DNA from: Borrelia hermsii DAH
GTDB taxonomy: Bacteria > Spirochaetota > Spirochaetia > Borreliales > Borreliaceae
Direction of reading: 5' to 3'
Length of the DNA: 12,304 bases
NCBI RefSeq assembly: GCF_023035675.1
Contig: NZ_CP073141.1
Location: 1-12,304, forward strand
Notes under the pieces: model-generated
What the model saw: the letters and a program-made list of their open reading frames with translations, nothing else
Told to the model about the DNA's origin: nothing
Databases searched by the model: none
Shown here: piece by piece, positions 1 to 12,304 of the stretch
Layout: each line of letters starts with the position of its first letter
Position numbering within the stretch: the first letter of the stretch is position 1
Translations under genes and position numbers: made by a program

Positions 1-25
1 TAGTTAATTAATTTTTAGTATAGAA
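1..25. other. Left hairpin telomere
   Basis: The tip begins TAGTTAATTAATTTT and carries TAGTATA at 16-22. That heptamer is the conserved 'box 3' of Borrelia telomeres, recognised by the telomere resolvase ResT. Its place about 15 bases from the end, in AT-rich sequence, fits a covalently closed hairpin end. The closed structure itself cannot be seen in a linear sequence file, and the exact tip base is uncertain. Confidence 0.8.
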
Positions 26-34
26 TAGCCAAAT

Positions 35-59
35 AATCATTATTATATCATAAATGATT
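35..59 (-). terminator. Weak hairpin at the end of the PF49 gene
   Basis: AATCATT and AATGATT (seven-base arms, about 11-base loop) straddle the PF49 stop codon and, read in the gene direction, are followed by ATTATTT. The stem is short and AT-rich, so this is at best a weak terminator. Transcription would in any case reach the hairpin end about 35 bases later. The same element lies at 12246-12270 on the plus strand. Confidence 0.25.
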
Positions 60-558
60 CCCAATTATCCAACAAATGTTTAAGCAAAAACTTCTCAAGC
101 TTTTGCTTATTTTTCACAAGAACCAATTGTTTCTCTTTGTCTTCCAAATTAAACCTAATAATAACGGGCTTACACTCTGGGGGGCTCTTTTTAACTCTTA
201 TATCATTAATAATTTTATTCAAAGAACTCTGCATAATATCTTGCTCGCTTATATTCTCTTTTTCTAAATAAGCACCTATTTTAATATATCTGTATATCAT
301 AGTTCTACTGAATTTATAGTCTAGGCAAAATTCATAAAAATTATCATATCCATCGAATCTGTATAATTTATTCTTCTTTATCTCATAAAGCGCTTTGGCC
401 AATTCTACCCTATTAACAGCTTCTTCTAAGGTCCGGGCCTTAATTTCTTCCTTAAGCTGCCTATATCTTAATCGAGCCTTTTCTTTGCCAGAATCACTCT
501 CAACTCGAGTTACATCCCCCACCCTACTTTTAATAGTATTAAGTATGTCTATTTTCAT
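43..558 (-). CDS. PF49-family plasmid partition protein (ParB-like)
   Basis: 171 residues. The central part (LYRFDGYDNFYEFCLDYKFS, then a YRYIKIG segment, about residues 65-95) matches what I recognise of the Borrelia PF49 / Plasmid_parti family: an aromatic-rich 'YDGYxxF' block followed by a helix-turn-helix-like segment. The C-terminal part, ending in LLKHLLDN, is also typical. Family members act with the PF32 ParA in segregating Borrelia plasmids. The ATG is preceded by AAGGA six bases upstream. It is the last gene of the operon, 188 bases after parA, separated from it by a 42-bp inverted repeat. Its stop codon lies only 42 bases from the telomere tip. Family assignment is good; the biochemical role is inferred from the family. 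Confidence 0.85.
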   Translation of the reverse strand: MKIDILNTIKSRVGDVTRVESDSGKEKARLRYRQLKEEIKARTLEEAVNRVELAKALYEIKKNKLYRFDGYDNFYEFCLDYKFSRTMIYRYIKIGAYLEKENISEQDIMQSSLNKIINDIRVKKSPPECKPVIIRFNLEDKEKQLVLVKNKQKLEKFLLKHLLDNWESFMI

Positions 559-569
559 TTTTATTCCTT

Positions 570-611
570 CAACATAAATATTTGTAAACCAGTTTACAAA
601 TATTTATGTTG
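570..611. repeat. 42-bp perfect inverted repeat: candidate centromere or operator
   Basis: Two 20-base arms, starting CAACATAAATATTTG and ending at a TG/CA centre of two bases, form a perfect inverted repeat. It overlaps the last codons of parA and fills most of the gap to the PF49 gene. In plasmid partition loci the centromere (parS) bound by the ParB-type protein is often placed like this, beside or between the two genes. There is no T-tract after the stem, so a terminator is less likely. Alternatives are an operator, or an mRNA hairpin that lowers PF49 expression. Confidence 0.6.
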
Positions 612-1371
612 TCTTTATGTTTTCAATACCTTCAATAACTTCAGCCACTTTTAAATATTCATTATAATATCTTTCGCTCTCCTGGGGCGCTAATCTATAA
701 GTAATCATCTTCTGGATAGCAGCACTTCTATGAATTTTAATCGGAACATATTCTTGATAAAGCTGTTGCAAGCTATAGAAAAATTCTTTCTTTATTTTTC
801 TATTTTCCTCATAAAGAGTTTGAATAACATAATAACTCTTAAAATCCTGTTTCTGATAAGCACTAATAATCTCTTGCATTTTACTTTTCAAAATATCATA
901 GCTCTCAATTGCCCAGAGCTCTGCTGGCAAAGGAATAACAACCTTAGTAGCAATCATCAAAGAATTAATAAGCTCTTTATTAACTGAGGGGGGAGTATCA
1001 ATTAATATATAATCATATTCATCGAAATAAGGTGTCAAAATCGTTTTCAACTTATACTCCTGCCCAATAATATTCTCTCCTGAAAATTGAGAAAGCTTAA
1101 TATGCGATGGAGCAAAGTGTAAATCATCTGTTATCTCATGTACAATACTCATAAAAGACTTTTTAGACTTTAATACTTCGTAAATATTATATTCTCTTAT
1201 ATCTATTTTGTTTTCAAAATAAGGAAGGAAATAAGAAGTAATACTAGCCTGGGAATCAATATCTATAAGCAAAGTTTTATACCTTTTAGAAAAAATAAAT
1301 CCCAACATTATCGCTGTTACACTTTTGCCAACTCCGCCCTTAATCGAAGAAATAGCTATAACATCTCTCAT
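604..1371 (-). CDS. parA: ParA-family partition ATPase (PF32)
   Basis: 255 residues. The deviant Walker A motif KGGVGKS is at residues 11-17 (signature lysine K11, phosphate-loop K16), the Walker A' region LLIDIDSQAS at 34-43, and the Walker B region YILIDTPPS at 121-129. ParA/MinD ATPases of this kind dimerise with ATP, bind DNA non-specifically and move plasmid copies apart together with a ParB-type protein. Starting directly with the Walker domain, it lacks the N-terminal HTH of the larger type Ia ParAs, so it may not be its own repressor. AGGGG lies six bases before the ATG. The start overlaps the end of the 89-aa gene by four bases (ATGA), implying coupled translation. The order parA then PF49 matches Borrelia plasmid partition clusters. 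Confidence 0.95.
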   Translation of the reverse strand: MRDVIAISSIKGGVGKSVTAIMLGFIFSKRYKTLLIDIDSQASITSYFLPYFENKIDIREYNIYEVLKSKKSFMSIVHEITDDLHFAPSHIKLSQFSGENIIGQEYKLKTILTPYFDEYDYILIDTPPSVNKELINSLMIATKVVIPLPAELWAIESYDILKSKMQEIISAYQKQDFKSYYVIQTLYEENRKIKKEFFYSLQQLYQEYVPIKIHRSAAIQKMITYRLAPQESERYYNEYLKVAEVIEGIENIKTT

Positions 1372-1637
1372 CTTATACCCCTAGAATCTAAACACTTAAA
1401 TCTCTTATCATAAAAAAGTTTATCCAAATTATCCTCAGCGACTAAGAGTTCCTCGGACAAAGAATTAACAACGCCAATATCTTTTGCCCTAACCGAAATA
1501 TTAAGCTTTTTAATCTTATTTTTTATTGTAAAATAGGAGATATTGTTAACCTTAGCCAAAAAAAGAGGAGTATAATATTTTTTCCCCTCATATTCAATGA
1601 AAAACTCTTTCAAATTTGTTTTCTCTGTCAAGCTCAA
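1368..1637 (-). CDS. Small helix-turn-helix-like protein upstream of parA
   Basis: 89 residues, not assigned to a named family. The segment from about residue 19, YYTPLFLAKVNNISYFTIKN, followed by KIKKLNI, has the spacing and hydrophobic pattern of an HTH that begins with an 'LAK..NIS..TI' recognition region, like MerR or excisionase folds. This is a reading of pattern, not a database match. It sits between the 71-aa gene and parA, overlapping the parA start by four bases, where a PF50 gene or an autoregulator would be expected. The start is ambiguous. The annotated TTG lies only three bases after the AAAAGGG Shine-Dalgarno, while a second in-frame TTG (mirrored at 10674) gives nine-base spacing and a product two residues shorter, which I prefer. 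Confidence 0.7.
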   Translation of the reverse strand: MSLTEKTNLKEFFIEYEGKKYYTPLFLAKVNNISYFTIKNKIKKLNISVRAKDIGVVNSLSEELLVAEDNLDKLFYDKRFKCLDSRGIR

Positions 1638-1648
1638 CTACCCTTTTG

Positions 1649-1864
1649 TCATTCTTTCTTTAACTTACACTTAATAAGATTTTGAGCCTCTTCACTTAAA
1701 AGCAACTCTCTTTTCTTAAAGAATAAATCCTTAGAAGAAATTATGCCTTCAATCTTATTTTTTTTTATATATCTCGAGAGATAAGAAGAATCGCTGTATC
1801 CCATCTCTCTTGAAAATTCTTTAAGGTTTTTTAAAGAATTTAAAAAATTTAGCGTAATTCGCAC
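1649..1864 (-). CDS. Small HTH-like protein, first gene of the partition operon
   Basis: 71 residues with a GTG start and AGGAG (1875-1879) ten bases upstream. I do not recognise a family. Residues about 14-37 (LKEFSREMGYSDSSYLSRYI) resemble the second HTH of AraC-type proteins ('G+sd.sylsR.FK'), and the rest is basic, so DNA binding is plausible. It is the promoter-proximal gene, about 66 bases downstream of the -10 box at 1930-1935 and directly next to a shared operator-like repeat. A role as repressor of the operon and/or of the divergent replication gene is an inference from position. The real open frame has a clean Shine-Dalgarno in both arms. Confidence 0.7.
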   Translation of the reverse strand: MRITLNFLNSLKNLKEFSREMGYSDSSYLSRYIKKNKIEGIISSKDLFFKKRELLLSEEAQNLIKCKLKKE

Positions 1865-1929
1865 GAAATTCTATCTCCTAAATAAGTTTTCATTAATAGC
1901 ACAACTTATTGTCTAACATAACTAACTTT

Positions 1930-1958
1930 ATTATAAACTATGAACATCATTTTGTAAA
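1930..1958 (-). promoter_or_regulatory. Promoter of the partition operon
   Basis: On the minus strand TTTACA (1953-1958) is followed after exactly 17 bases by TATAAT (1930-1935). This is a near-consensus sigma-70 promoter pointing to the 71-aa gene. The predicted start leaves a leader of about 58 bases. Its -35 lies inside the inverted repeat at 1949-1973. The mirrored copy is at 10347-10375 on the plus strand. Confidence 0.6.
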
Positions 1959-1973
1959 TCAAATTGACAAAAT
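1949..1973. promoter_or_regulatory. Shared operator-like inverted repeat
   Basis: Arms ATTTTGT (1949-1955) and ACAAAAT (1967-1973) are separated by 11 bases and cover both divergent -35 boxes. A dimeric repressor bound here could silence partition and replication genes together. The 71-aa or 89-aa HTH-like proteins are the natural candidates, by position only. Confidence 0.45.
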
Positions 1974-1992
1974 AACTTTTTTGGTATATAAA
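1964..1992 (+). promoter_or_regulatory. Promoter of the replication gene
   Basis: TTGACA (1964-1969), 17 bases, then TATAAA (1987-1992): a strong sigma-70 match pointing into the replication gene, with an untranslated leader of about 100 bases. Its -35 box sits in the same inverted repeat as the -35 of the divergent operon promoter, only five bases away. The mirrored copy is at 10313-10341 on the minus strand. Confidence 0.6.
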
Positions 1993-2048
1993 TTAGTATA
2001 TATAAATTATATTAATAATTATCTTGTTCTTTAAATAAAACTAGAGAC

Positions 2049-2073
2049 AAAAAAGACCTATAATAAAGGTCTT
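2049..2073 (-). terminator. Intrinsic terminator in the replication-gene leader
   Basis: Seven-base arms AAGACCT and AGGTCTT with a seven-base loop are followed on the minus strand by TTTTTT. On the plus strand the same hairpin lies in the replication mRNA leader without a T-tract, where it could be a structured target for an antisense RNA. The right-arm copy is at 10232-10256 on the plus strand. Confidence 0.6.
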
Positions 2074-2119
2074 AAACAAACTGAAATAAAGGATAAATCG
2101 ATGAAAAATTTAAATTTCT
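2049..2119 (-). ncRNA. Candidate antisense RNA over the replication-gene start
   Basis: On the strand opposite the replication gene, TTGATT (2149-2154) is followed after 17 bases by TATTAT (2126-2131), predicting a start near 2119. Transcription would meet a hairpin (2053-2073) followed by six T's, an intrinsic terminator. The resulting RNA of about 71 nt would be complementary to the Shine-Dalgarno (2089-2093), the start codon (2101) and the leader of the replication gene. This is the layout of a counter-transcribed RNA that limits plasmid copy number. AT-rich DNA yields promoter look-alikes easily, so the terminator orientation is the stronger part of the evidence. Confidence 0.4.
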
Positions 2120-2676
2120 TTTTACATAATAACAGCAAACTCAAGAAAAATCAAGTTAGACTAATAAAACTAATTTCCATCCTAAAATATCTAAATAAAA
2201 ACAGGTTAGGATATAACCAACAAGATATACTCAACTTAGCTAACTTTTTTCTAAAAAAAGAAGGTTACTCAGTAATTAAAATGAAAACATTACAAAAAGA
2301 CTTGGGCTTCCTCAAAAAAAACCATGTAATTAAAACATTCATAATAAGACTTGGGGAATACAAAGGTTCAAAAATAAAGTATATGCCAAAAAGAAACGCA
2401 TATCAAATATTAAAGCAAGTACTCAATTCAACAGAAGAACTATTAGAAAAAACATTCAATATCATACATAAACTAAATAAACAGGAGAAAATCAAAAACA
2501 AAACCGAAGAAAAAAATAGAACAAAAAATAGCAGTGTATATAATATAATATATAATAATATAAATAATAAGAAAAAAATAGAAAGAGCAACGAATAGACA
2601 ACAGCAAATAAAAGAAAAAATAGTAAAAAAGTACACATTGCAAGGGGATACACAACGGGAAACTACCAAAGTCTGA
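2101..2676 (+). CDS. PF57/62 (Borrelia_orfA) replication protein, N-terminal part
   Basis: 191 residues; AAGGA lies seven bases before the ATG. The start is typical of Borrelia_orfA replication proteins: LISILKYLNKN (about residues 25-35), YNQQDIL (38-44), then a KMKTLQKDLGFLKK block (60-73) that resembles the family's 'VKLKTLQNYLYKLEK'. Family members are the presumed replication initiators of Borrelia plasmids. From about residue 120 the protein is Lys/Asn-rich and low in complexity. Relatives I recall are usually longer, well above 300 residues. After the stop the same frame has two more stops, then coding-like sequence continues to 3010, so the gene is probably a truncated or decaying version. 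The N-terminal half, with its own promoter, is intact in this arm. Confidence 0.75.
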   Translation: MKNLNFFLHNNSKLKKNQVRLIKLISILKYLNKNRLGYNQQDILNLANFFLKKEGYSVIKMKTLQKDLGFLKKNHVIKTFIIRLGEYKGSKIKYMPKRNAYQILKQVLNSTEELLEKTFNIIHKLNKQEKIKNKTEEKNRTKNSSVYNIIYNNINNKKKIERATNRQQQIKEKIVKKYTLQGDTQRETTKV

Positions 2677-3010
2677 TAACAACAAAAATAAAAGGGAATG
2701 AAAAAACCAATGCACAAACCAAAATTAAAAAGAAAGAAATATCTACACAAGTATAGAGCCAAAAACTTTCAATTCTTGAAGCTTATATAATACCCTAAAG
2801 AGGGTATCAGAAAGAATACAAAAAAGCAAAGATGCAAAAGAAAGACCTCATAATAAAAACACTAGCAAAAACTTATCAAATAACTACAATAATCAAAACA
2901 CTAATAACAAAAAGACAATAAAAGATCAAAATTGTAAAAACAACCAATCTCAAACAAAGGCTTGGAAAAAACAAAGCCTAAATAATAAAAGACAAAACCC
3001 TAAAGCATAG
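2677..3010 (+). pseudogene. Decayed 3' part of the replication gene
   Basis: After the stop at 2674-2676 the same frame meets TAA at 2677 and again at 2689, then stays open from ATG 2698 to a stop at 2788-2790, encoding 30 residues such as KRKKYLHKYRAKNFQFLKL. One frame over, sequence from 2780 runs open to TAG 3008-3010 (about 75 codons), beginning SLYNTLKRVSERIQKSKDAK and then Asn/Lys-rich. The two pieces read like one protein broken by a single-base change near 2780. I take them as the former C-terminal half of the replication protein, but the assignment is by position and composition. Confidence 0.45.
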
Positions 3011-3046
3011 CAAAGAATATTTTAAAAATTAAGAATGGTAGAATAA

Positions 3047-3196
3047 AAAGCAACAAAGAAAGCACATCTTGTCCATCAAAGTTTATCAACGTATTATGAA
3101 TTTTGCAAAAATTATGGTGACATTAGCACTCTTTCTCTTAAGAGCATCACCAAAGTCCCAGTAAAACATACTAATATTAACCTTAAAAGCAAATAA
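3047..3196 (+). pseudogene. Short coding-like remnant, unidentified
   Basis: From 3047 to the stop at 3194-3196 one frame is open without a start codon. It gives a normal-looking protein sequence, for example LSTYYEFCKNYGDISTLSLK. The run is short and has no ribosome site. It may belong to the far end of the decayed replication gene or to another lost gene. The mirrored copy is 9108-9257 on the minus strand. Confidence 0.25.
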
Positions 3197-3203
3197 ATTC
3201 GGT

Positions 3204-3401
3204 TCATTCATTACTTTTTATCATATCGTCAGGTAATGAATGGATTACAAAATCAAATAATCGTTGTAATTTTGGATTGCTTATTGGCAAATAAAACTCG
3301 CCAAACTTGATGTATGCAATTTTATTCACAACAGTGCATTTGTAAACGGATTTCTTGGGAGGGGGGGGATAATATAATATCCTGAATGATAACTTTAGAA
3401 T
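3204..3401 (-). pseudogene. Remnant or slip-switchable small gene with a G8/C8 tract
   Basis: On the minus strand a frame without a start codon encodes a protein-like stretch (SVYKCTVVNKIAYIKFGEFY, then LPISNPKLQRLFDFV) ending at TGA 3204-3206. Upstream, an ATG frame (minus strand 3322-3441, 39 codons) starts with a hydrophobic segment, MLFFCLLISLFYL, like a signal peptide. It runs into the same eight-C tract (plus-strand G8 at 3361-3368). Removing one C would join both into one frame of 78 residues. No Shine-Dalgarno is visible, so decay is the simplest reading. The right copy spans 8863-9100 on the plus strand. Confidence 0.3.
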
Positions 3402-3442
3402 TTAAGTAAAAAAGGCTAATAAGCAAACAAAAAAATAACATT

Positions 3443-3661
3443 ATGCTTAAACAAGGGACTTCAAAAAAGAATACTTACAGTGGGGATGTTTCAATTGAAT
3501 CTTTCTTAAGGGAAGAATTTATATGCAAAATAAGAACTTTTTTCCTATCAATTCAAACTCAACATACAAATTACTTAGCAAATGGCATTACATTACAATA
3601 CGACATTTTCTCAATCAACGAATTTTTTCTTTTAAAGCAAGTGTTTAAACTGGTAGTTTAG
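3443..3661 (+). CDS. Doubtful 72-aa open frame, unidentified
   Basis: 72 residues with no recognisable motif and no Shine-Dalgarno before the ATG. A different frame inside it (3523-3648, 41 residues, starting MQNKNFFPIN) does have a good site, AAGGGA about nine bases before its ATG, and is at least as plausible. Neither has a family I know. Both lie among decayed sequence, so either may be chance. The mirrored frames are 8643-8861 and 8656-8781 on the minus strand. Confidence 0.2.
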   Translation: MLKQGTSKKNTYSGDVSIESFLREEFICKIRTFFLSIQTQHTNYLANGITLQYDIFSINEFFLLKQVFKLVV

Positions 3662-3718
3662 ATTTTTGTCGGTATATTTACAATATACCTAAATCTAGGC
3701 ACGGATTACGGCCCATGC

Positions 3719-3748
3719 AAATAAAAAGAAAACCCCTTGGGGAAGGGG
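3719..3748 (-). terminator. Intrinsic terminator
   Basis: On the minus strand, a stem CCCCTT / AAGGGG with loop CCCC is followed by TTTTCTTTTTATTT. This is the most GC-rich hairpin of the arm and a textbook terminator. It points outward, toward the telomere, and would stop transcripts coming from the direction of the 220-aa gene. No intact gene lies directly before it; the 220-aa gene ends about 1.2 kb upstream, so it may be a relic of a lost gene. Confidence 0.75.
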
Positions 3749-3810
3749 ATTATTTAAAAGAATGTATGGTATGAAGTAAATATTGATAATAAATTCTTTT
3801 AATTTTAAAA

Positions 3811-3816
3811 AAGGAG
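3811..3816 (+). promoter_or_regulatory. Orphan Shine-Dalgarno
   Basis: AAGGAG with no usable start codon behind it; the following frame hits TAA quickly. It lies just before the decayed coding stretch at 3904-4557 and may be what is left of that gene's ribosome site. Confidence 0.3.
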
Positions 3817-3903
3817 AATATTTAATAATTAAGTATTAGTTCAAAAATTAATCATTTTCAAGTTTTTCCAAAACATTACTCAATATTTTTCTCAAAATTT
3901 TAA

Positions 3904-4557
3904 ATAGATGTACCAATAATCATTAATGATCCTGTAATTTCGAGTCATAAAGACAAAGTTACCATTGTTTTAATGATCCGATTAAATTGCAATATAACTT
4001 TGAAGCAATTAGTCAAAATTATTCTTAGAGCAATAGGAACAGAAGGATTTCAATAACTTCATGGACGACCTTTCTAAAGAATACAAAGGCATGAATATAA
4101 GGTGCCTTACAGGGAACATTTGACTTCAAACTTTATGTCCCATTAATGCCGTTATCGTAAAATCTTGTTCTATACAGGAGAAGTAAAAAGCTCTCTAATA
4201 TTAACAATGGTAATTTATTGGGCTTCAAATATTAGGAAAAGGTTCGTTATGCCCTCATATTTGGTATTAATAATATGATGAATTTGTTAGAAAAGGGGGA
4301 AACACGTGCTTTTAGATTTTTATTATTGCTAAATAGCTAAGGGCCTTAAAAGACAGTGAAAATATTTATTGTAAATATGATATAGGATTTGCGATTAGTT
4401 TGTATGTGAAACACAGAGACTCAGTTTGTCGACTTTCAGATTGAGCCTTCTAAATATTGACCGCATTAATAACAGCACACTTGCAAGTTCAACATTGATA
4501 ATTTCCTTGTATTTATTTTACGGAAATAACGACAATATGTTTTACTATAATTTTTAG
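3904..4557 (+). pseudogene. Decayed protein-coding gene, unidentified
   Basis: Successive fragments in changing frames read like ordinary protein. 3904-4056 is a 50-codon stretch beginning IDVPIIINDPVISSHKDKV. 4101-4160 includes GTFDFKLYVPLMPLS. 4200-4340, with one internal TAG, includes EKVRYALIFGINNMMNLLEK. About 4341-4444 includes LKDSENIYCKYDIGFAISLY. 4399-4557 is a further open run. All point the same way and are interrupted by single stops and shifts, as expected of a dead gene of about 220 codons. I do not recognise the family. An orphan Shine-Dalgarno lies upstream at 3811-3816. Chance open runs in AT-rich DNA are the alternative. Confidence 0.4.
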
Positions 4558-4659
4558 ATTTACAGTTTCTATTTTGCCAAAAGAATTACAATATATTGGG
4601 AGGAATAAATAGATTATTATGATATATGTTTGTTTGGGGGCATATATTTTTTAGAATGC

Positions 4660-4723
4660 AAGAAAAGAAAGTCCCTACTCCTATGTCTTGTTTTGGAGAG
4701 GATTAATAGGAGTGTTGGGGACT
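4660..4723 (-). terminator. Long hairpin, probable terminator of the 220-aa gene
   Basis: On the minus strand AGTCCCC and ACTCCTAT pair with ATAGGAGT and AGGGACT across a loop of about 21 bases. A T-rich stretch (TTCTTTTCTT) follows. It lies about 200 bases after the 220-aa stop codon. The stem has an internal bulge and a large loop, so it might also be a structured RNA element. The last 10 bases of the feature are the T-rich tail. Confidence 0.55.
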
Positions 4724-4825
4724 GTTGATAGAATTCTTTCTACCGTATTTATATATGTTTATAATATTATTTTATTTTTTTAATTTTGTAAATATTTTTA
4801 AACAATTTTATTATATTCGATATCA

Positions 4826-4921
4826 ATACCCAAGATTTTTTGACACAATCAACAGTACAAACAAGTTGCTAACAGGTTGATATTCGGATGTTATTGCCAC
4901 CGTTTGCCATCGGGATTTATA
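4826..4921 (-). other. In-frame open run after the 220-aa stop codon
   Basis: After the TAG of the 220-aa gene the same frame stays open for 32 codons (starting YKSRWQTVAITSEYQPVSNL) before TGA. Either the ancestral protein was longer and was cut by a point change to TAG, or this is chance. The mirror is 7383-7478 on the plus strand. Confidence 0.25.
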
Positions 4922-5584
4922 CTAAATACATTTGCACTTATTCTCCTGCTTTAAATCATGATCAAGCTTTTTTATTGCTTTCATAAGTCTCATTTGACCC
5001 ATTTGCAAGGCAGAAATTTTTCTCCTCTTATTTCTAAAATTTAATTCTTGGTTTATTTTTTTATTCAATTCTTGCATTTCTTTAATTTCTAAGGCACTTG
5101 GTTCATAATCGATCCACTTTTTATCTACCCACCCCTTTTCCCATTCATAATATCCTTCATTGTAGTTAGTTCCATTAGACTCATCAAAATGCCTTGAAAG
5201 GGCTGATATTACTTTTACGCCGTACTGAAGCATTTTCTCTGTTTCCGTCTTTGCAATAAATTCATCATAATCATAAGTTTTGCCCGTTTGCATATTAATG
5301 ATATCAACAATTAACTTAAAGGTATTTATGCAGTTCATTGCAATATTGCCAAATGGGAGATCTGGACTACTTAGACATTTAATATTGACTTCATATTTAT
5401 TCTTTAAGCTTTTAGGTATTTTGAAGAAGTCAACTATAAATCCATCGACTTTGGATTTATAGTTTGCTTCATATTGAGAATTTCCGAAAAAGGTTTCACG
5501 ATTACCCTCGGTCATGTAATTATCATAATCCAGTATCATAGGCAGTTTTCTTTCTCGGGCATTATATTGTTTAATATTTCTCAT
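4922..5584 (-). CDS. 220-aa protein of unknown function
   Basis: 220 residues; a GAGGA Shine-Dalgarno six bases before the ATG supports the start. I do not recognise a family. There is no signal peptide or membrane segment, so it should be cytoplasmic. The N-terminal two thirds is mixed in composition and looks globular, with Tyr/Trp-rich stretches such as NYNEGYYEWEKGW (about 141-153). From about residue 160 it is a charged, probably helical tail (EMQELNKKINQELNFRNKRR and onward), which could form a coiled coil, ending in a Cys-Lys-Cys motif. It stands alone, transcribed toward the telomere. It is the only intact-looking gene of the inner half of the arm, which suggests it is kept for a function. 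Confidence 0.75.
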   Translation of the reverse strand: MRNIKQYNARERKLPMILDYDNYMTEGNRETFFGNSQYEANYKSKVDGFIVDFFKIPKSLKNKYEVNIKCLSSPDLPFGNIAMNCINTFKLIVDIINMQTGKTYDYDEFIAKTETEKMLQYGVKVISALSRHFDESNGTNYNEGYYEWEKGWVDKKWIDYEPSALEIKEMQELNKKINQELNFRNKRRKISALQMGQMRLMKAIKKLDHDLKQENKCKCI

Positions 5585-5813
5585 CTCATATCCTCAGAAA
5601 TCAAAATTCTTTTTTTATCTTTATATCATACATTATTATAATATATATTAAATAAGAATGGGTATAAATAGCTGATAATTTTTTAGTCTAAAATTTTTTG
5701 CTTGTTTAACAGGGGATTGATATTCATTTACCTGAAATTATTATTTTTATATTTGATATTGTTTTTTTGCTGGCTTGCAATATACTTAATTTATCTTTAA
5801 CCTTTAACCATTT
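5585..5813. other. AT-rich upstream region of the 220-aa gene
   Basis: No gene seen. It holds the probable promoter of the 220-aa gene near 5625-5640, a small palindrome TTTTAG-T-CTAAAA near 5684, and, read on the minus strand, a doubled GGTTAAA. The mirrored stretch is 6491-6719. Confidence 0.4.
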
Positions 5814-5854
5814 ATAAGAAGCTTTGAGCGAGCAATTTTCTCAAGGCTTCTTAT
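5814..5854. repeat. Strong hairpin between the spacer and the 220-aa gene
   Basis: ATAAGAAGC pairs with GCTTCTTAT and TTGAG with CTCAA around an 11-base loop, with one unpaired or wobble position. No good T-tract follows on either strand. It could be an mRNA leader structure of the 220-aa gene, or a relic of a transposon end like the neighbouring tnpB remnant. The mirrored copy is 6450-6490. Confidence 0.5.
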
Positions 5855-5886
5855 TGCTTTATCTTCTATACAGAACAATAATACAG

Positions 5887-6171
5887 CTATGCCGGGTTAC
5901 TTTTATAGAGTTGTTGATATAATCTGATTATTCTAAACTCAGTGAGTTTGAATTGATTATATCCTTTAATTAACAAGTTGTCTATTATTATGTTCTCATG
6001 ATTATTTACAAAGGATAGGGGTAGTTTATGCAGAAAGTATTTTCTTTGATTAGCAATCTTTTTGTGTAATCTGGCAACCCTTAATCTAGCTTGGTCTCTA
6101 TTATTTTAGCATTTCTTCTTCTTATATAATCCTCCTTATCTTCTTTGGTATTTTTTGAGCTTATTCTCACT
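5887..6171 (-). pseudogene. tnpB: Fragment of an IS200/IS605-family tnpB
   Basis: Read on the minus strand, one frame gives NKLKKYQRR, a stop, KKKK, a stop, then NRDQARLRVARLHKKIANQR and YFLHKLPLSFVNN, followed by IIIDNLLIKG. This is the middle of TnpB: the basic helix region and the RuvC-II strand, whose usual 'EDL' has become 'DNL', so the catalytic Glu is replaced by Asp. Two internal stops (6136-6138, 6106-6108) and absent N- and C-terminal parts make it dead. Similarity fades at about 5960, the arm boundary; the frame then runs on in arm sequence to a stop at 5887-5889. TnpB is an RNA-guided nuclease of these transposons; nothing here could be active. Confidence 0.8.
5930..5953. repeat. 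Palindrome with one bulged T at the inner edge of the arm
   Basis: ATTC plus AAACTCA pair with TGAGTTT plus GAAT around a single G, with one unpaired T at 5934. Subterminal hairpins with a bulged T are a known feature of IS200/IS605-family ends, where the TnpA transposase binds. This one lies next to a tnpB remnant and only five bases from where the two arms stop matching. The mirrored copy is 6351-6374. Confidence 0.5.
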
Positions 6172-6345: not shown

Positions 6346-6719
6346 AATCAATTCAAACTCACTGAGTTTAGAATAATCAGATTATATCAACAACTCTATA
6401 AAAGTAACCCGGCATAGCTGTATTATTGTTCTGTATAGAAGATAAAGCAATAAGAAGCCTTGAGAAAATTGCTCGCTCAAAGCTTCTTATAAATGGTTAA
6501 AGGTTAAAGATAAATTAAGTATATTGCAAGCCAGCAAAAAAACAATATCAAATATAAAAATAATAATTTCAGGTAAATGAATATCAATCCCCTGTTAAAC
6601 AAGCAAAAAATTTTAGACTAAAAAATTATCAGCTATTTATACCCATTCTTATTTAATATATATTATAATAATGTATGATATAAAGATAAAAAAAGAATTT
6701 TGATTTCTGAGGATATGAG

Positions 6720-7382
6720 ATGAGAAATATTAAACAATATAATGCCCGAGAAAGAAAACTGCCTATGATACTGGATTATGATAATTACATGACCGAGGGT
6801 AATCGTGAAACCTTTTTCGGAAATTCTCAATATGAAGCAAACTATAAATCCAAAGTCGATGGATTTATAGTTGACTTCTTCAAAATACCTAAAAGCTTAA
6901 AGAATAAATATGAAGTCAATATTAAATGTCTAAGTAGTCCAGATCTCCCATTTGGCAATATTGCAATGAACTGCATAAATACCTTTAAGTTAATTGTTGA
7001 TATCATTAATATGCAAACGGGCAAAACTTATGATTATGATGAATTTATTGCAAAGACGGAAACAGAGAAAATGCTTCAGTACGGCGTAAAAGTAATATCA
7101 GCCCTTTCAAGGCATTTTGATGAGTCTAATGGAACTAACTACAATGAAGGATATTATGAATGGGAAAAGGGGTGGGTAGATAAAAAGTGGATCGATTATG
7201 AACCAAGTGCCTTAGAAATTAAAGAAATGCAAGAATTGAATAAAAAAATAAACCAAGAATTAAATTTTAGAAATAAGAGGAGAAAAATTTCTGCCTTGCA
7301 AATGGGTCAAATGAGACTTATGAAAGCAATAAAAAAGCTTGATCATGATTTAAAGCAGGAGAATAAGTGCAAATGTATTTAG
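6720..7382 (+). CDS. 220-aa protein of unknown function, right-arm copy
   Basis: Same product as 4922-5584. The Shine-Dalgarno GAGGA is at 6709-6713. An AT-rich upstream stretch contains TATAAT (6664-6669) and TATGAT (6674-6679) as possible -10 boxes, without a clear -35. The two copies are transcribed away from each other, outward from the central spacer. Confidence 0.75.
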   Translation: MRNIKQYNARERKLPMILDYDNYMTEGNRETFFGNSQYEANYKSKVDGFIVDFFKIPKSLKNKYEVNIKCLSSPDLPFGNIAMNCINTFKLIVDIINMQTGKTYDYDEFIAKTETEKMLQYGVKVISALSRHFDESNGTNYNEGYYEWEKGWVDKKWIDYEPSALEIKEMQELNKKINQELNFRNKRRKISALQMGQMRLMKAIKKLDHDLKQENKCKCI

Positions 7383-7580
7383 TATAAATCCCGATGGCAA
7401 ACGGTGGCAATAACATCCGAATATCAACCTGTTAGCAACTTGTTTGTACTGTTGATTGTGTCAAAAAATCTTGGGTATTGATATCGAATATAATAAAATT
7501 GTTTAAAAATATTTACAAAATTAAAAAAATAAAATAATATTATAAACATATATAAATACGGTAGAAAGAATTCTATCAAC

Positions 7581-7644
7581 AGTCCCCAACACTCCTATTA
7601 ATCCTCTCCAAAACAAGACATAGGAGTAGGGACTTTCTTTTCTT
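7581..7644 (+). terminator. Long hairpin, probable terminator, right-arm copy
   Basis: Arms 7581-7587 plus 7591-7598, and 7620-7627 plus 7628-7634; T-rich tail to 7644. Same as 4660-4723. Confidence 0.55.
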
Positions 7645-7746
7645 GCATTCTAAAAAATATATGCCCCCAAACAAACATATATCATAATAATCTATTTATT
7701 CCTCCCAATATATTGTAATTCTTTTGGCAAAATAGAAACTGTAAAT

Positions 7747-8400
7747 CTAAAAATTATAGTAAAACATATTGTCGTTATTTCCGTAAAATAAATACAAGGA
7801 AATTATCAATGTTGAACTTGCAAGTGTGCTGTTATTAATGCGGTCAATATTTAGAAGGCTCAATCTGAAAGTCGACAAACTGAGTCTCTGTGTTTCACAT
7901 ACAAACTAATCGCAAATCCTATATCATATTTACAATAAATATTTTCACTGTCTTTTAAGGCCCTTAGCTATTTAGCAATAATAAAAATCTAAAAGCACGT
8001 GTTTCCCCCTTTTCTAACAAATTCATCATATTATTAATACCAAATATGAGGGCATAACGAACCTTTTCCTAATATTTGAAGCCCAATAAATTACCATTGT
8101 TAATATTAGAGAGCTTTTTACTTCTCCTGTATAGAACAAGATTTTACGATAACGGCATTAATGGGACATAAAGTTTGAAGTCAAATGTTCCCTGTAAGGC
8201 ACCTTATATTCATGCCTTTGTATTCTTTAGAAAGGTCGTCCATGAAGTTATTGAAATCCTTCTGTTCCTATTGCTCTAAGAATAATTTTGACTAATTGCT
8301 TCAAAGTTATATTGCAATTTAATCGGATCATTAAAACAATGGTAACTTTGTCTTTATGACTCGAAATTACAGGATCATTAATGATTATTGGTACATCTAT
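7747..8400 (-). pseudogene. Decayed protein-coding gene, right-arm copy
   Basis: Mirror of 3904-4557 with the same interruptions, so the decay came before the arm duplication or was spread by conversion. Confidence 0.4.
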
Positions 8401-8555
8401 TTAAAATTTTGAGAAAAATATTGAGTAATGTTTTGGAAAAACTTGAAAATGATTAATTTTTGAACTAATACTTAATTATTAAATATTCTCCTTTTTTAAA
8501 ATTAAAAGAATTTATTATCAATATTTACTTCATACCATACATTCTTTTAAATAAT

Positions 8556-8585
8556 CCCCTTCCCCAAGGGGTTTTCTTTTTATTT
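8556..8585 (+). terminator. Intrinsic terminator, right-arm copy
   Basis: Stem 8556-8561 / 8566-8571, T-rich tract 8572-8585. Same element as 3719-3748. Confidence 0.75.
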
Positions 8586-8642
8586 GCATGGGCCGTAATC
8601 CGTGCCTAGATTTAGGTATATTGTAAATATACCGACAAAAAT

Positions 8643-8861
8643 CTAAACTACCAGTTTAAACACTTGCTTTAAAAGAAAAAATTCGTTGATTGAGAAAATG
8701 TCGTATTGTAATGTAATGCCATTTGCTAAGTAATTTGTATGTTGAGTTTGAATTGATAGGAAAAAAGTTCTTATTTTGCATATAAATTCTTCCCTTAAGA
8801 AAGATTCAATTGAAACATCCCCACTGTAAGTATTCTTTTTTGAAGTCCCTTGTTTAAGCAT
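8643..8861 (-). CDS. Doubtful 72-aa open frame, right-arm copy
   Basis: Identical to 3443-3661. The alternative 41-aa frame with a better ribosome site is 8656-8781 on the same strand. Confidence 0.2.
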   Translation of the reverse strand: MLKQGTSKKNTYSGDVSIESFLREEFICKIRTFFLSIQTQHTNYLANGITLQYDIFSINEFFLLKQVFKLVV

Positions 8862-8862
8862 A

Positions 8863-9100
8863 ATGTTATTTTTTTGTTTGCTTATTAGCCTTTTTTACTT
8901 AAATTCTAAAGTTATCATTCAGGATATTATATTATCCCCCCCCTCCCAAGAAATCCGTTTACAAATGCACTGTTGTGAATAAAATTGCATACATCAAGTT
9001 TGGCGAGTTTTATTTGCCAATAAGCAATCCAAAATTACAACGATTATTTGATTTTGTAATCCATTCATTACCTGACGATATGATAAAAAGTAATGAATGA
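8863..9100 (+). pseudogene. Right-arm copy of the C8-tract small gene
   Basis: The ATG frame 8863-8982 encodes the hydrophobic start; the downstream frame 8903-9100 encodes the rest; the C8 tract is at 8936-8943. The tract has eight bases in both arms, so the broken state is shared. Confidence 0.3.
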
Positions 9101-9293
9101 ACCGAATTTATTTGCTTTTAAGGTTAATATTAGTATGTTTTACTGGGACTTTGGTGATGCTCTTAAGAGAAAGAGTGCTAATGTCACCATAATTTTTGCA
9201 AAATTCATAATACGTTGATAAACTTTGATGGACAAGATGTGCTTTCTTTGTTGCTTTTTATTCTACCATTCTTAATTTTTAAAATATTCTTTG

Positions 9294-9627
9294 CTATGCT
9301 TTAGGGTTTTGTCTTTTATTATTTAGGCTTTGTTTTTTCCAAGCCTTTGTTTGAGATTGGTTGTTTTTACAATTTTGATCTTTTATTGTCTTTTTGTTAT
9401 TAGTGTTTTGATTATTGTAGTTATTTGATAAGTTTTTGCTAGTGTTTTTATTATGAGGTCTTTCTTTTGCATCTTTGCTTTTTTGTATTCTTTCTGATAC
9501 CCTCTTTAGGGTATTATATAAGCTTCAAGAATTGAAAGTTTTTGGCTCTATACTTGTGTAGATATTTCTTTCTTTTTAATTTTGGTTTGTGCATTGGTTT
9601 TTTCATTCCCTTTTATTTTTGTTGTTA
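9294..9627 (-). pseudogene. Decayed 3' part of the replication gene, right-arm copy
   Basis: Same broken frames as 2677-3010. The long T-rich open frames on the plus strand here (9542-9901 and 9589-9831) are shadows of this region. Confidence 0.45.
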
Positions 9628-10204
9628 TCAGACTTTGGTAGTTTCCCGTTGTGTATCCCCTTGCAATGTGTACTTTTTTACTATTTTTTCTTTTATTTGC
9701 TGTTGTCTATTCGTTGCTCTTTCTATTTTTTTCTTATTATTTATATTATTATATATTATATTATATACACTGCTATTTTTTGTTCTATTTTTTTCTTCGG
9801 TTTTGTTTTTGATTTTCTCCTGTTTATTTAGTTTATGTATGATATTGAATGTTTTTTCTAATAGTTCTTCTGTTGAATTGAGTACTTGCTTTAATATTTG
9901 ATATGCGTTTCTTTTTGGCATATACTTTATTTTTGAACCTTTGTATTCCCCAAGTCTTATTATGAATGTTTTAATTACATGGTTTTTTTTGAGGAAGCCC
10001 AAGTCTTTTTGTAATGTTTTCATTTTAATTACTGAGTAACCTTCTTTTTTTTAGAAAAAAGTTAGCTAAGTTGAGTATATCTTGTTGGTTATATCCTAAC
10101 CTGTTTTTATTTAGATATTTTAGGATGGAAATTAGTTTTATTAGTCTAACTTGATTTTTCTTGAGTTTGCTGTTATTATGTAAAAAGAAATTTAAATTTT
10201 TCAT
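9628..10204 (-). pseudogene. PF57/62 replication gene, frameshifted right-arm copy
   Basis: Inverted copy of 2101-2676 with one extra base in a homopolymer (T8 at 10045-10052 on the plus strand, against A7 in the left arm). From ATG 10202-10204 the frame runs 53 residues as in the left copy, then six different ones (RRLLSN) and a stop at 10025-10027. The rest is open from an internal ATG (10021-10023) as a 131-residue frame with no convincing ribosome site. Either this copy is dead, or the base is a homopolymer sequencing error. Length variation of such tracts could also switch expression. Confidence 0.7.
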
Positions 10205-10256
10205 CGATTTATCCTTTATTTCAGTTTGTTTAAGACCTTTATTATAGGTCTTTTTT
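10186..10256 (+). ncRNA. Candidate antisense RNA, right-arm copy
   Basis: Mirror of the left candidate: -35 TTGATT 10151-10156, -10 TATTAT 10174-10179, terminator 10232-10256. Since the right replication gene is frameshifted, an RNA made here could still act in trans on the left-arm mRNA. Confidence 0.4.
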
Positions 10257-10331
10257 GTCTCTAGTTTTATTTAAAGAACAAGATAATTATTAATATAATT
10301 TATATATACTAATTTATATACCAAAAAAGTT

Positions 10332-10356
10332 ATTTTGTCAATTTGATTTACAAAAT
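10332..10356. promoter_or_regulatory. Shared operator-like inverted repeat, right-arm copy
   Basis: Mirror of 1949-1973. The operon promoter reads rightward (TTTACA 10347-10352, TATAAT 10370-10375) and the replication promoter reads leftward (-35 at 10336-10341, -10 at 10313-10318). Confidence 0.45.
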
Positions 10357-10440
10357 GATGTTCATAGTTTATAATAAAGTTAGTTATGTTAGACAATAAG
10401 TTGTGCTATTAATGAAAACTTATTTAGGAGATAGAATTTC

Positions 10441-10656
10441 GTGCGAATTACGCTAAATTTTTTAAATTCTTTAAAAAACCTTAAAGAATTTTCAAGAGAG
10501 ATGGGATACAGCGATTCTTCTTATCTCTCGAGATATATAAAAAAAAATAAGATTGAAGGCATAATTTCTTCTAAGGATTTATTCTTTAAGAAAAGAGAGT
10601 TGCTTTTAAGTGAAGAGGCTCAAAATCTTATTAAGTGTAAGTTAAAGAAAGAATGA
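10441..10656 (+). CDS. Small HTH-like protein, first operon gene, right-arm copy
   Basis: Same product as 1649-1864. The GTG is at 10441 and AGGAG at 10426-10430. A 14-codon open frame starting at ATG 10412 overlaps the Shine-Dalgarno and the GTG in another frame; it has no ribosome site of its own and is probably chance. Confidence 0.7.
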   Translation: MRITLNFLNSLKNLKEFSREMGYSDSSYLSRYIKKNKIEGIISSKDLFFKKRELLLSEEAQNLIKCKLKKE

Positions 10657-10667
10657 CAAAAGGGTAG

Positions 10668-10937
10668 TTGAGCTTGACAGAGAAAACAAATTTGAAAGAG
10701 TTTTTCATTGAATATGAGGGGAAAAAATATTATACTCCTCTTTTTTTGGCTAAGGTTAACAATATCTCCTATTTTACAATAAAAAATAAGATTAAAAAGC
10801 TTAATATTTCGGTTAGGGCAAAAGATATTGGCGTTGTTAATTCTTTGTCCGAGGAACTCTTAGTCGCTGAGGATAATTTGGATAAACTTTTTTATGATAA
10901 GAGATTTAAGTGTTTAGATTCTAGGGGTATAAGATGA
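10668..10937 (+). CDS. Small helix-turn-helix-like protein, right-arm copy
   Basis: Same product as 1368-1637. The Shine-Dalgarno AAAAGGG is at 10658-10664; the TTG at 10674 is better spaced than the one at 10668. It follows the stop of the 71-aa gene (10654-10656) by about 11-17 bases and runs into parA through ATGA, so the four genes read as one operon. Confidence 0.7.
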   Translation: MSLTEKTNLKEFFIEYEGKKYYTPLFLAKVNNISYFTIKNKIKKLNISVRAKDIGVVNSLSEELLVAEDNLDKLFYDKRFKCLDSRGIR

Positions 10938-11701
10938 GAGATGTTATAGCTATTTCTTCGATTAAGGGCGGAGTTGGCAAAAGTGTAACAGCGATAATGT
11001 TGGGATTTATTTTTTCTAAAAGGTATAAAACTTTGCTTATAGATATTGATTCCCAGGCTAGTATTACTTCTTATTTCCTTCCTTATTTTGAAAACAAAAT
11101 AGATATAAGAGAATATAATATTTACGAAGTATTAAAGTCTAAAAAGTCTTTTATGAGTATTGTACATGAGATAACAGATGATTTACACTTTGCTCCATCG
11201 CATATTAAGCTTTCTCAATTTTCAGGAGAGAATATTATTGGGCAGGAGTATAAGTTGAAAACGATTTTGACACCTTATTTCGATGAATATGATTATATAT
11301 TAATTGATACTCCCCCCTCAGTTAATAAAGAGCTTATTAATTCTTTGATGATTGCTACTAAGGTTGTTATTCCTTTGCCAGCAGAGCTCTGGGCAATTGA
11401 GAGCTATGATATTTTGAAAAGTAAAATGCAAGAGATTATTAGTGCTTATCAGAAACAGGATTTTAAGAGTTATTATGTTATTCAAACTCTTTATGAGGAA
11501 AATAGAAAAATAAAGAAAGAATTTTTCTATAGCTTGCAACAGCTTTATCAAGAATATGTTCCGATTAAAATTCATAGAAGTGCTGCTATCCAGAAGATGA
11601 TTACTTATAGATTAGCGCCCCAGGAGAGCGAAAGATATTATAATGAATATTTAAAAGTGGCTGAAGTTATTGAAGGTATTGAAAACATAAAGACAACATA
11701 A
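10934..11701 (+). CDS. parA: ParA-family partition ATPase (PF32), right-arm copy
   Basis: Same protein as the 604-1371 copy, with all three nucleotide-binding motifs intact. The ATG follows AGGGG at 10923-10927 and overlaps the preceding stop (ATGA). In Borrelia the PF32 sequence usually decides plasmid compatibility, so two identical copies on one molecule act as one compatibility type. Confidence 0.95.
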   Translation: MRDVIAISSIKGGVGKSVTAIMLGFIFSKRYKTLLIDIDSQASITSYFLPYFENKIDIREYNIYEVLKSKKSFMSIVHEITDDLHFAPSHIKLSQFSGENIIGQEYKLKTILTPYFDEYDYILIDTPPSVNKELINSLMIATKVVIPLPAELWAIESYDILKSKMQEIISAYQKQDFKSYYVIQTLYEENRKIKKEFFYSLQQLYQEYVPIKIHRSAAIQKMITYRLAPQESERYYNEYLKVAEVIEGIENIKTT

Positions 11702-11735
11702 ATATTTGTAAACTGGTTTACAAATATTTATGTTG
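11694..11735. repeat. 42-bp perfect inverted repeat, right-arm copy
   Basis: Same element as 570-611, with arms 11694-11713 and 11716-11735. If it is the partition site, the plasmid has two centromeres, each close to a telomere. Confidence 0.6.
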
Positions 11736-11746
11736 AAGGAATAAAA

Positions 11747-12262
11747 ATGAAAATAGACATACTTAATACTATTAAAAGTAGGGTGGGGGATGTAACTCGA
11801 GTTGAGAGTGATTCTGGCAAAGAAAAGGCTCGATTAAGATATAGGCAGCTTAAGGAAGAAATTAAGGCCCGGACCTTAGAAGAAGCTGTTAATAGGGTAG
11901 AATTGGCCAAAGCGCTTTATGAGATAAAGAAGAATAAATTATACAGATTCGATGGATATGATAATTTTTATGAATTTTGCCTAGACTATAAATTCAGTAG
12001 AACTATGATATACAGATATATTAAAATAGGTGCTTATTTAGAAAAAGAGAATATAAGCGAGCAAGATATTATGCAGAGTTCTTTGAATAAAATTATTAAT
12101 GATATAAGAGTTAAAAAGAGCCCCCCAGAGTGTAAGCCCGTTATTATTAGGTTTAATTTGGAAGACAAAGAGAAACAATTGGTTCTTGTGAAAAATAAGC
12201 AAAAGCTTGAGAAGTTTTTGCTTAAACATTTGTTGGATAATTGGGAATCATTTATGATATAA
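11747..12262 (+). CDS. PF49-family plasmid partition protein, right-arm copy
   Basis: Identical in sequence to the product of the left-arm gene at 43-558. The start ATG follows AAGGA at 11736-11740. The stop codon lies 42 bases from the right tip. With two intact copies per molecule, the dosage of both partition partners is doubled relative to a single-arm plasmid. Confidence 0.85.
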   Translation: MKIDILNTIKSRVGDVTRVESDSGKEKARLRYRQLKEEIKARTLEEAVNRVELAKALYEIKKNKLYRFDGYDNFYEFCLDYKFSRTMIYRYIKIGAYLEKENISEQDIMQSSLNKIINDIRVKKSPPECKPVIIRFNLEDKEKQLVLVKNKQKLEKFLLKHLLDNWESFMI

Positions 12263-12279
12263 TAATGATTATTTGGCTA

Positions 12280-12304
12280 TTCTATACTAAAAATTAATTA
12301 ACTA
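12280..12304. other. Right hairpin telomere
   Basis: Exact complement of the left tip, with the TAGTATA box on the minus strand at 12283-12289. Both ends of the molecule therefore carry the same telomere, whereas the two telomeres of a Borrelia replicon usually differ in sequence. Confidence 0.8.

What the first reader, a model, noticed from the sequence alone, without database searches (positions are those of the whole stretch)
1..12304. A linear plasmid that is an inverted duplication around a 387-bp non-telomeric spacer
The arms of about 5.96 kb match as inverted copies, and both outer ends carry the same telomere. A replicated but unresolved Borrelia plasmid would be an inverted dimer with a telomere junction at its exact centre. 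Here the centre is a unique, non-palindromic 387-base stretch holding a dead tnpB. This suggests a fold-back event: one arm lost its old right end, and the broken end was repaired by copying back from an inverted position inside the tnpB region. That would create a symmetric replicon with two telomeres of one type and a doubled gene set.
Basis: partly seen in the sequence, partly recalled or inferred. Interest (0 to 1): 0.8.

Follow-up and report, generated by a model that had tools for sequence, protein, structure and literature searches.

The report
Borrelia's two-armed mirror-image linear plasmid
This 12.3-kb Borrelia plasmid consists of two near-identical 6-kb halves facing each other around a short single-copy centre; the same layout is found in many relapsing-fever Borrelia and was published in 2023, and comparison between species suggests that the doubling is probably old and that the halves are likely kept identical by copying from one another.

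Summary
In detail: bases 1-5961 and 6343-12304 are inverted copies (one homopolymer indel, one edge mismatch) around a 381-387-nt single-copy centre with a tnpB remnant, and both ends carry the same telomere sequence. It is not new. This is the F27 family of relapsing-fever Borrelia; Kneubehl et al. 2023 (PMC10580987) describe an "ancestral inverted duplication", test it by digestion and nanopore reads, and mention the transposase pseudogene in B. hermsii DAH. The window is very probably DAH lp12.

In 14 plasmids compared, arms differ by 0-3 substitutions within a plasmid but up to 23% between species, so they are probably homogenised by gene conversion. The arm border lies about 40 bp further inward in nietonii than in hermsii: the present edge is a moving border, not a birth scar. 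tnpB pieces also follow the ittA locus in an unnamed relative and in lp17 of B31 and mayonii, so tnpB probably predates the duplication. Spacers of anserina and two unnamed relatives match no other.

The parts
1..5961 (+). left arm of the inverted duplication
   Evidence: inverted copy of 6343-12304
6343..12304 (-). right arm of the inverted duplication
5962..6342 (.). single-copy spacer between the arms
   Evidence: aligns with spacers of nietonii, coriaceae and the turicatae group
5963..6182 (-). tnpB (IS605 OrfB-type) remnant, about nt 637-839 of the gene, cut off at the left arm border
   Evidence: stops in all frames
6183..6342 (.). part of the spacer that aligns with the turicatae group and coriaceae
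1..22 (+). left telomere sequence with box-3-like TTTAGTATA
   Evidence: tip read-through in the HS1 record
12283..12304 (-). right telomere sequence, same as the left
43..558 (-). PF49-type partition protein (left copy)
   Evidence: PF01672, borfam_49 NF033725 above cut-off
11747..12262 (+). PF49-type partition protein (right copy)
   Evidence: identical translation
604..1371 (-). ParA / PF32 of the F27 type (left copy)
10934..11701 (+). ParA / PF32 of the F27 type (right copy)
2101..2676 (+). plasmid maintenance protein (Borrelia_orfA; PF57/62 type, a name recalled), open in the left arm
   Evidence: PF02414
9628..10204 (-). right-arm copy of the same gene, frameshifted by one extra base in an A/T run
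   Evidence: HS1 agrees with the left arm
4922..5584 (-). bbd18 homologue (left copy)
   Evidence: 61% identity over 199 aa to the B31 lp17 protein at the bbd18 place
6720..7382 (+). bbd18 homologue (right copy)
   Evidence: identical translation
5740..5867 (+). ittA-like locus with conserved terminal hairpin (left copy)
   Evidence: matches B31 lp17 11737-11851; hairpin with compensatory changes
6437..6564 (-). ittA-like locus (right copy)
3719..3880 (.). nearly invariant noncoding element E1 (left copy; right copy 8424-8585)
4655..4840 (.). conserved noncoding element E2 beside the bbd18 homologue (right copy 7464-7649)

Best explanation
This is an F27-type linear plasmid of Borrelia hermsii, an inverted dimer, probably ancestral, with a telomere sequence at each end, whose two arms are likely kept identical by gene conversion that also shifts the border between the arms and the single-copy centre. 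Shown: the symmetry, the shared layout in related species, the near-absence of differences between arms against large differences between species, the similarity of a group of soft-tick spacers, and the different border positions. Inferred: conversion (copying between arms or sister molecules) as the homogenising process; processing of both telomeres by the resolvase encoded on another replicon of the same genome; descent of the centre from an lp17-like order bbd18 - ittA - tnpB; and the original event. For that event I commit to a replication dimer left unresolved at its inner telomere, followed by asymmetric loss of the central palindrome, at about 50% against ancestral fold-back repair or transposon-linked fusion.
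For: Two ParA places in 33 of 38 plasmid records with an F27-type ParA at 90% identity or more; the other 5 are half-size records of 4978-6540 bp. In 14 of 14 two-armed records compared, arms differ by 0-3 substitutions and 0-6 indels (12 substitutions and 33 indels in all, 25 of the indels in homopolymers), and the two arms of one plasmid are sisters in the tree, while left arms differ by up to 23% between species and by 7.7% between hermsii and nietonii. Spacers of hermsii, nietonii, coriaceae and the turicatae group match each other, most pairs with 0 of 200 shuffles as good. Nietonii arms run about 40 bp further inward than hermsii's (208 against 166 nt past the ittA core): sequence single-copy in hermsii is on both sides in nietonii, ending at ACAAGT in the tnpB remnant. 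In 16 of 16 two-armed plasmids the border lies just beyond the ittA-like locus (exact core motif in 15 of 16, 89-208 nt from the border). A wrap-round contig of an unnamed relative has exact palindromes at two tips 11,162 bp apart and a 274-nt single-copy centre between them. Counted from the right arm, tnpB follows ittA in the same direction in hermsii, nietonii and that relative, as in lp17 of B31 and mayonii. A ResT/TelK-type gene is in the same genome. Published digestion data for DAH fit a linear molecule of this size.
Against: The 14 records were chosen for having two arms. Polishing with short reads can make arms look more alike than they are, and two of the 14 have one incomplete end. 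Four of nine isolates digested by Kneubehl et al. kept a fragment compatible with other topologies. Spacers of anserina and of two unnamed relatives match no other spacer tested; miyamotoi matches weakly, and against hermsii no better than 8-12 of 200 shuffles and in the opposite orientation. A single common origin therefore rests partly on layout and border position. No telomere-like motif was found in any of the 12 spacers scanned, so the proposed origin rests on plausibility. tnpB remnants are common on Borrelia plasmids (118 records match the spacer), so their place beside ittA could be coincidence; valaisiana lp17 and two reptile-associated plasmids lack one there.
Confidence: 0.74

Rival explanations
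1. Recent fold-back in this lineage: a broken right end was repaired by copying back from an inverted position inside tnpB.
For: The tnpB homology starts at the arm border in this plasmid (5963), and a local copying event into the tnpB end is seen in nietonii.
Against: The inverted layout exists in many other species, and 13 of the 16 spacers tested have no convincing tnpB match (two of the 13 have weak matches at chance level). The border has moved between sister species.
Confidence: 0.05
2. Ancestral fold-back (template switch or hairpin-primed repair), perhaps inside or beyond tnpB, without an unresolved dimer.
For: A short single-copy loop between long inverted arms is what fold-back leaves; in hermsii, nietonii and the unnamed relative G012 the left arm ends in or next to tnpB.
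Against: Nothing in the sequence separates it from an unresolved dimer with later central loss; the original join has probably been overwritten by border movement.
Confidence: 0.3
3. Transposon-linked fusion of two copies of one plasmid, as Kneubehl et al. suggest.
For: A transposase pseudogene lies in the spacer of hermsii and nietonii, and a 78-nt piece of the tnpB start lies in the spacer of the unnamed relative G012.
Against: lp17 of B31 and mayonii has tnpB in the same order and direction, and the stretches seen there show no inverted duplication, so tnpB can be there for other reasons. tnpB remnants are common. A fusion mechanism has no direct trace.
Confidence: 0.15
4. Assembly artefact: hairpin read-through or a chimeric join doubled a 6-kb plasmid.
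For: Borrelia hairpins give inverted read-through in long-read assemblies (PMC12958805, passages). Older assemblies give 5-6.5-kb records.
Against: Read-through makes an exact palindrome at the tip, as in HS1 and L048, not a single-copy spacer. HS1 also crosses arm-spacer-arm. Published digests support the layout, EcoRI being used for DAH; the window has exactly two EcoRI sites, 4731 and 7568.
Confidence: 0.03

Closest known systems
F27 plasmid family of relapsing-fever Borrelia (Kneubehl et al. 2023, PMC10580987): lp10, lp11, lp12
   Same: Same ParA type, size, linear topology, inverted arms, variable spacer; the transposase pseudogene is reported for B. hermsii DAH.
   Different: A term search of its main text gives 0 hits for gene conversion, homogen-, bbd18, lp17 and ittA. 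It says the other isolates lack sequence similarity in the transposase region, whereas I find the rest of the spacer similar across a group of soft-tick species, and a tnpB piece in one unnamed relative.
lp17 of Lyme-disease Borrelia (B31, mayonii, valaisiana)
   Same: Shares E2 - bbd18 - ittA in the same order; E1 is clear in valaisiana; tnpB follows ittA in B31 and mayonii.
   Different: The parts seen are not inverted-duplicated; the ParA is of another type; only about 1.2-2.1 kb per arm corresponds.
Chloroplast inverted repeats and Y-chromosome palindromes (recalled, no call)
   Same: Long inverted arms homogenised by conversion, a single-copy centre, borders that move.
   Different: Other replicons and enzymes; resemblance in behaviour only.
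Natural linear plasmid dimers reported in B. burgdorferi sensu lato in the 1990s (recalled, not seen in a call)
   Same: Inverted dimers of hairpin-ended plasmids.
   Different: As recalled, joined at a telomere junction; here the centre is single-copy.

Membership tests
F27 plasmid family | F27-type PF32/ParA | tested here: met
   ParA 100% identical to HS1, 99.2% to nietonii YOR lp11, 92-96% to the other 36 records of the group; the next records shown are at 38-40%, and all others counted are below 60% (capped at 5000 records)
F27 plasmid family | 10-12 kb linear plasmid of two inverted halves with a central spacer | tested here: met
   linear ends by sequence and by HS1 tip read-through
F27 plasmid family | No PF50 partition gene | tested here: met
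   7 left-arm ORFs scanned gave PF49, PF32/ParA and Borrelia_orfA matches only; that PF50 equals DUF226 and that Borrelia_orfA equals PF57/62 is recalled
F27 plasmid family | Physical size and topology of the molecule | not testable with these tools
   The published digest for DAH used EcoRI; the window has exactly two EcoRI sites, one either side of the spacer
Unresolved replication dimer | Telomere junction at the exact centre | tested here: not met
   No box-3-like motif inside the spacer; centre single-copy
bbd18 gene family | Protein similarity and neighbourhood (ittA upstream) | tested here: met
   61% identity over 199 aa; ittA-like locus upstream
ittA small RNA | Transcribed RNA processed to about 70 nt | not testable with these tools
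   Only sequence, position and hairpin conservation were seen

The most novel reading that the evidence does not exclude
F27 is an lp17-like regulatory block (bbd18 - ittA - tnpB) that became fixed as its own mirror image: a permanently palindromic bacterial replicon that behaves like a chloroplast inverted repeat, its arms correcting each other by conversion while their borders creep through the old tnpB region, so that two copies of a bbd18 homologue and an ittA-like RNA are kept through most of the relapsing-fever lineage.
Probability: 0.5. Interest if true: 0.6.

Novelty: already known. Interest (0 to 1): 0.4.

Why it matters
The structure itself is published. What the comparison adds is a testable reason why it persists: a small linear plasmid whose halves correct each other, with a border whose movement can be followed between sister species. 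It also offers a reason why F27 is so widely kept: it carries relatives of a regulator (bbd18, called essential for viability of wild-type B. burgdorferi in vitro in the abstract of PMC9839762, seen in a search listing) and of an infectivity-linked small RNA (ittA, PMC7224557, passages) in two copies, whereas the Lyme-disease records matched have one bbd18 place each in the rows shown. It is not universal: 10 of the 18 same-genus genomes searched have the F27-type ParA. Of the 8 without it, three are 0.9-Mb single contigs, and one (G017) is near-complete, with 20 contigs.

Tried and rejected
Present tnpB edge as the birth scar: rejected. Hairpin read-through as the cause of the symmetry: rejected. 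A telomere relic in the centre: none in the 12 spacers scanned. tnpB as a late insertion in hermsii and nietonii alone: I held this until a direct test found a 78-nt piece of the tnpB start in the spacer of G012 (E 5.7e-12) and long tnpB remnants after ittA in lp17 of B31 and mayonii. Because of that I raised transposon-linked fusion from 0.10 to 0.15, and because the spacers of G010, G012 and anserina match no other I lowered the best explanation from 0.78 to 0.74. Control for the tnpB match: 5 of 200 block shuffles of the G012 spacer reached E 1e-4 or better, so the weak matches in turicatae 91E135 (8e-4) and puertoricensis (5e-4) are taken as chance. GC skew for an origin: the cumulative minimum lies near the centre in 6 of 8 records but in an arm in hermsii and parkeri, and the symmetry makes it ambiguous. 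Spacer orientation differs between deposited records, but the molecule is symmetric, so it only reflects the strand deposited. Rfam on 1-6400: no match near a gathering score; two weak matches to a microRNA family on one short palindrome. Covariation for E1: too few changes to judge. The enzymes named in the paper cut once either side of the centre in 8 of the 9 records checked; EcoRV has no site in the puertoricensis record.

Limits: of the 33 two-copy plasmid records 13 were fetched and compared with the window; 20 further B. miyamotoi records were not. Of the 5 half-size records 3 were fetched. The shuffles move two-base blocks, 200 times. Anserina, G010 and G012 were left out of the alignments. 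For the paper searches I saw listings; PMC4718594, PMC5870499, PMC9108270 and PMC13081726 were opened for passages, PMC9039534 was not opened.
Full report
What was claimed and what is there. The window is a whole contig of its genome. Two inverted arms, 1-5961 and 6343-12304, match except for one base in an A-run (A7 at 2253-2259 against T8 at 10045-10052) and one mismatch 2 nt from the inner edge. The extra base breaks the right-arm copy of the Borrelia_orfA-type gene; the HS1 record agrees with the left arm, so the difference may be an error. The centre is 381 nt (387 if counted from before the mismatch) and single-copy in the genome apart from one weak 42-nt match. It holds a tnpB remnant at 5963-6182. 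Both ends read TAGTTAATTAATTTTTAGTATA.

It is published. Kneubehl et al. 2023 (PMC10580987; I read passages, the first of two parts of the F27 section and the first of two parts of the discussion) report that the F27 family, present in all Western Hemisphere soft-tick species they studied, is a linear 10-12-kb plasmid with an ancestral inverted duplication and a variable spacer. They tested this with a restriction enzyme cutting either side of the spacer, S1 nuclease and nanopore sequencing. Five isolates including B. hermsii DAH were relatively unambiguous; four kept a fragment that could mean mixed topology or incomplete digestion. They note a transposase pseudogene in the DAH spacer and suggest a mobile element fused two plasmid copies. 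The window is very probably that plasmid: the genome has 12 contigs, as many as the DAH replicons listed in PMC9158201 (passages), and the window has exactly two EcoRI sites, one either side of the spacer, EcoRI being the enzyme used for DAH. The DAH record itself was not in the collections.

The layout is not hairpin read-through. The B. hermsii HS1 record, deposited as a circular 6.5-kb plasmid, is identical to window 1-6530 preceded by 10 nt that form a palindrome with the window's first bases: it runs round a tip at one end and through the spacer into the second arm at the other. A contig of an unnamed relative (G012, L048) has exact palindromes centred at 5444 and 16606, 11,162 bp apart, and between them a 274-nt single-copy centre. 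Tips give exact palindromes; the centre does not.

Age and maintenance. Among plasmid records with an F27-type ParA of 90% identity or more, 33 of 38 have two places and 5 are half-size. I compared 14 two-armed plasmids (the window and 13 of the 33; 20 B. miyamotoi records not fetched). Arms within a plasmid differ by 0-3 substitutions, while left arms differ by 7.7% between hermsii and nietonii and by up to 23% across the set, and the two arms of one plasmid are sisters in 14 of 14 cases. If the duplication is ancestral, the arms must have been evened out since; short-read polishing may exaggerate the identity. The spacers of hermsii, nietonii, coriaceae and the turicatae group (turicatae, parkeri, venezuelensis, puertoricensis, fainii) match each other: most pairs tested had 0 of 200 block shuffles as good, the weakest being hermsii-coriaceae (6), hermsii-fainii (1) and turicatae-nietonii (1). 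Miyamotoi matches weakly, and against hermsii no better than 8-12 of 200 and in the opposite orientation; anserina, G010 and G012 show no clear match to any spacer tried (the best, G010 with miyamotoi, had 9 of 200 shuffles as good). In all 16 two-armed plasmids examined the border lies just past the ittA-like locus. One ancestral event is thus the simplest reading, but the spacers alone prove it only for part of the group.

The border moves. In nietonii the arms extend about 40 bp further than in hermsii (208 against 166 nt past the ittA core): the stretch that is single-copy in hermsii beside the right arm is found on both sides in nietonii, ending at ACAAGT, a hexamer present at that place in the hermsii tnpB remnant. 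tnpB genes elsewhere align with hermsii through the replaced bases, so nietonii is the derived state. Coriaceae, the turicatae group and miyamotoi have yet other borders. So the edge of tnpB at 5962 is where copying last stopped.

tnpB and the old order. Of 16 spacers tested directly, three have a convincing tnpB match: hermsii and nietonii (about gene nt 637-839 and 637-821) and G012 (nt 1-78). Read from the right arm, each lies beyond ittA and runs in the same direction as ittA, with gaps of 262 nt (hermsii) and 235 nt (G012); B31 lp17 has a long tnpB remnant 311 nt beyond ittA in the same direction, and mayonii lp17 has one too. In valaisiana lp17 and in two reptile-associated plasmids none was found there. 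tnpB remnants are common on Borrelia plasmids (118 records match the spacer), and the lp17 copy is less like the hermsii piece (64%) than copies elsewhere (69-73%), so coincidence is possible; but descent of the F27 centre from an lp17-like order bbd18 - ittA - tnpB is the likelier reading. It would mean that tnpB was there before the duplication and that the left arm has since eaten into it to different depths.

How it likely works (inferred). Each end is a hairpin telomere, to be processed by the resolvase, for which a gene is on contig C12. The two arms are long templates for each other, so breaks or mutations in one can be copied from the other; copying that runs on into the spacer enlarges the arms. 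How the first inverted dimer arose cannot be read from the sequence: an unresolved replication dimer that later lost its centre is the simplest route for a hairpin plasmid, and ancestral fold-back is the main alternative.

What it carries. Besides partition genes, each arm has a homologue of BBD18 (61% over 199 aa) and, upstream of it, a locus matching B31 lp17 11737-11851, the place of the small RNA ittA (transcription start at 11689 and 3' part removed at 11820-11850 in PMC7224557, passages). A terminal hairpin there is conserved, 7 of 16 pairs showing change on both sides with the pair kept in at least one of 13 sequences. That the B. miyamotoi 6-kb plasmid has a BBD18 homologue was noted in PMC4718594 (passages). 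I found no paper linking F27 to ittA in the searches (listings), the term search of PMC10580987 or that of PMC13081726.

Verdict. The interest lies in the evidence for homogenisation and border movement, and in the doubled lp17-like regulatory block.

Noticed in passing
window 5740-5867 (+) and 6437-6564 (-): Locus homologous to the B. burgdorferi lp17 small RNA ittA, with an invariant core and a hairpin kept by compensatory changes, in both arms; 13 sequences aligned from relapsing-fever, reptile-associated and Lyme Borrelia.
   Followed up: partly
window 3719-3880 and 8424-8585: A nearly invariant noncoding element (E1): matches with E below 1e-40 in 30 of 61 genomes searched, all 30 among the 36 genomes of the window's own family, and no match at 0.001 in the 25 others; a diverged copy at G000:C7:9568-9707. 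No Rfam family.
   Followed up: partly
window 4655-4840 and 7464-7649: Second conserved noncoding element (E2) beside the bbd18 homologue; 78% identity over 115 nt in B31 lp17. The lp17 small RNA BasA (SR0735) is described as near ittA (PMC13081726, passages); whether E2 is BasA was not tested.
   Followed up: no
window 570-611 and 11694-11735: A 42-bp near-perfect palindrome lying between the PF49-type gene and ParA and overlapping the end of ParA by a few bases, perhaps a terminator or partition site.
   Followed up: no
window 2253-2259 / 10045-10052: A one-base homopolymer difference truncates the right-arm Borrelia_orfA-type gene. In several other F27 records one of the two copies of this gene is also annotated as split or shortened; the cause there was not checked.
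   Followed up: partly
NC_011263.1 (L023) right end: The B. recurrentis pl6 record ends in G+C-rich sequence unlike the rest, and looks like a half plasmid with a doubtful end.
   Followed up: no
L025 1229-3230, L026 4599-6643: The E1 - E2 - bbd18-like - ittA-like block lies near an end of large linear plasmids in two reptile-associated Borrelia.
   Followed up: partly
G017: A near-complete same-genus genome (1.6 Mb, 20 contigs) without an F27-type ParA; its name is not known.
   Followed up: no
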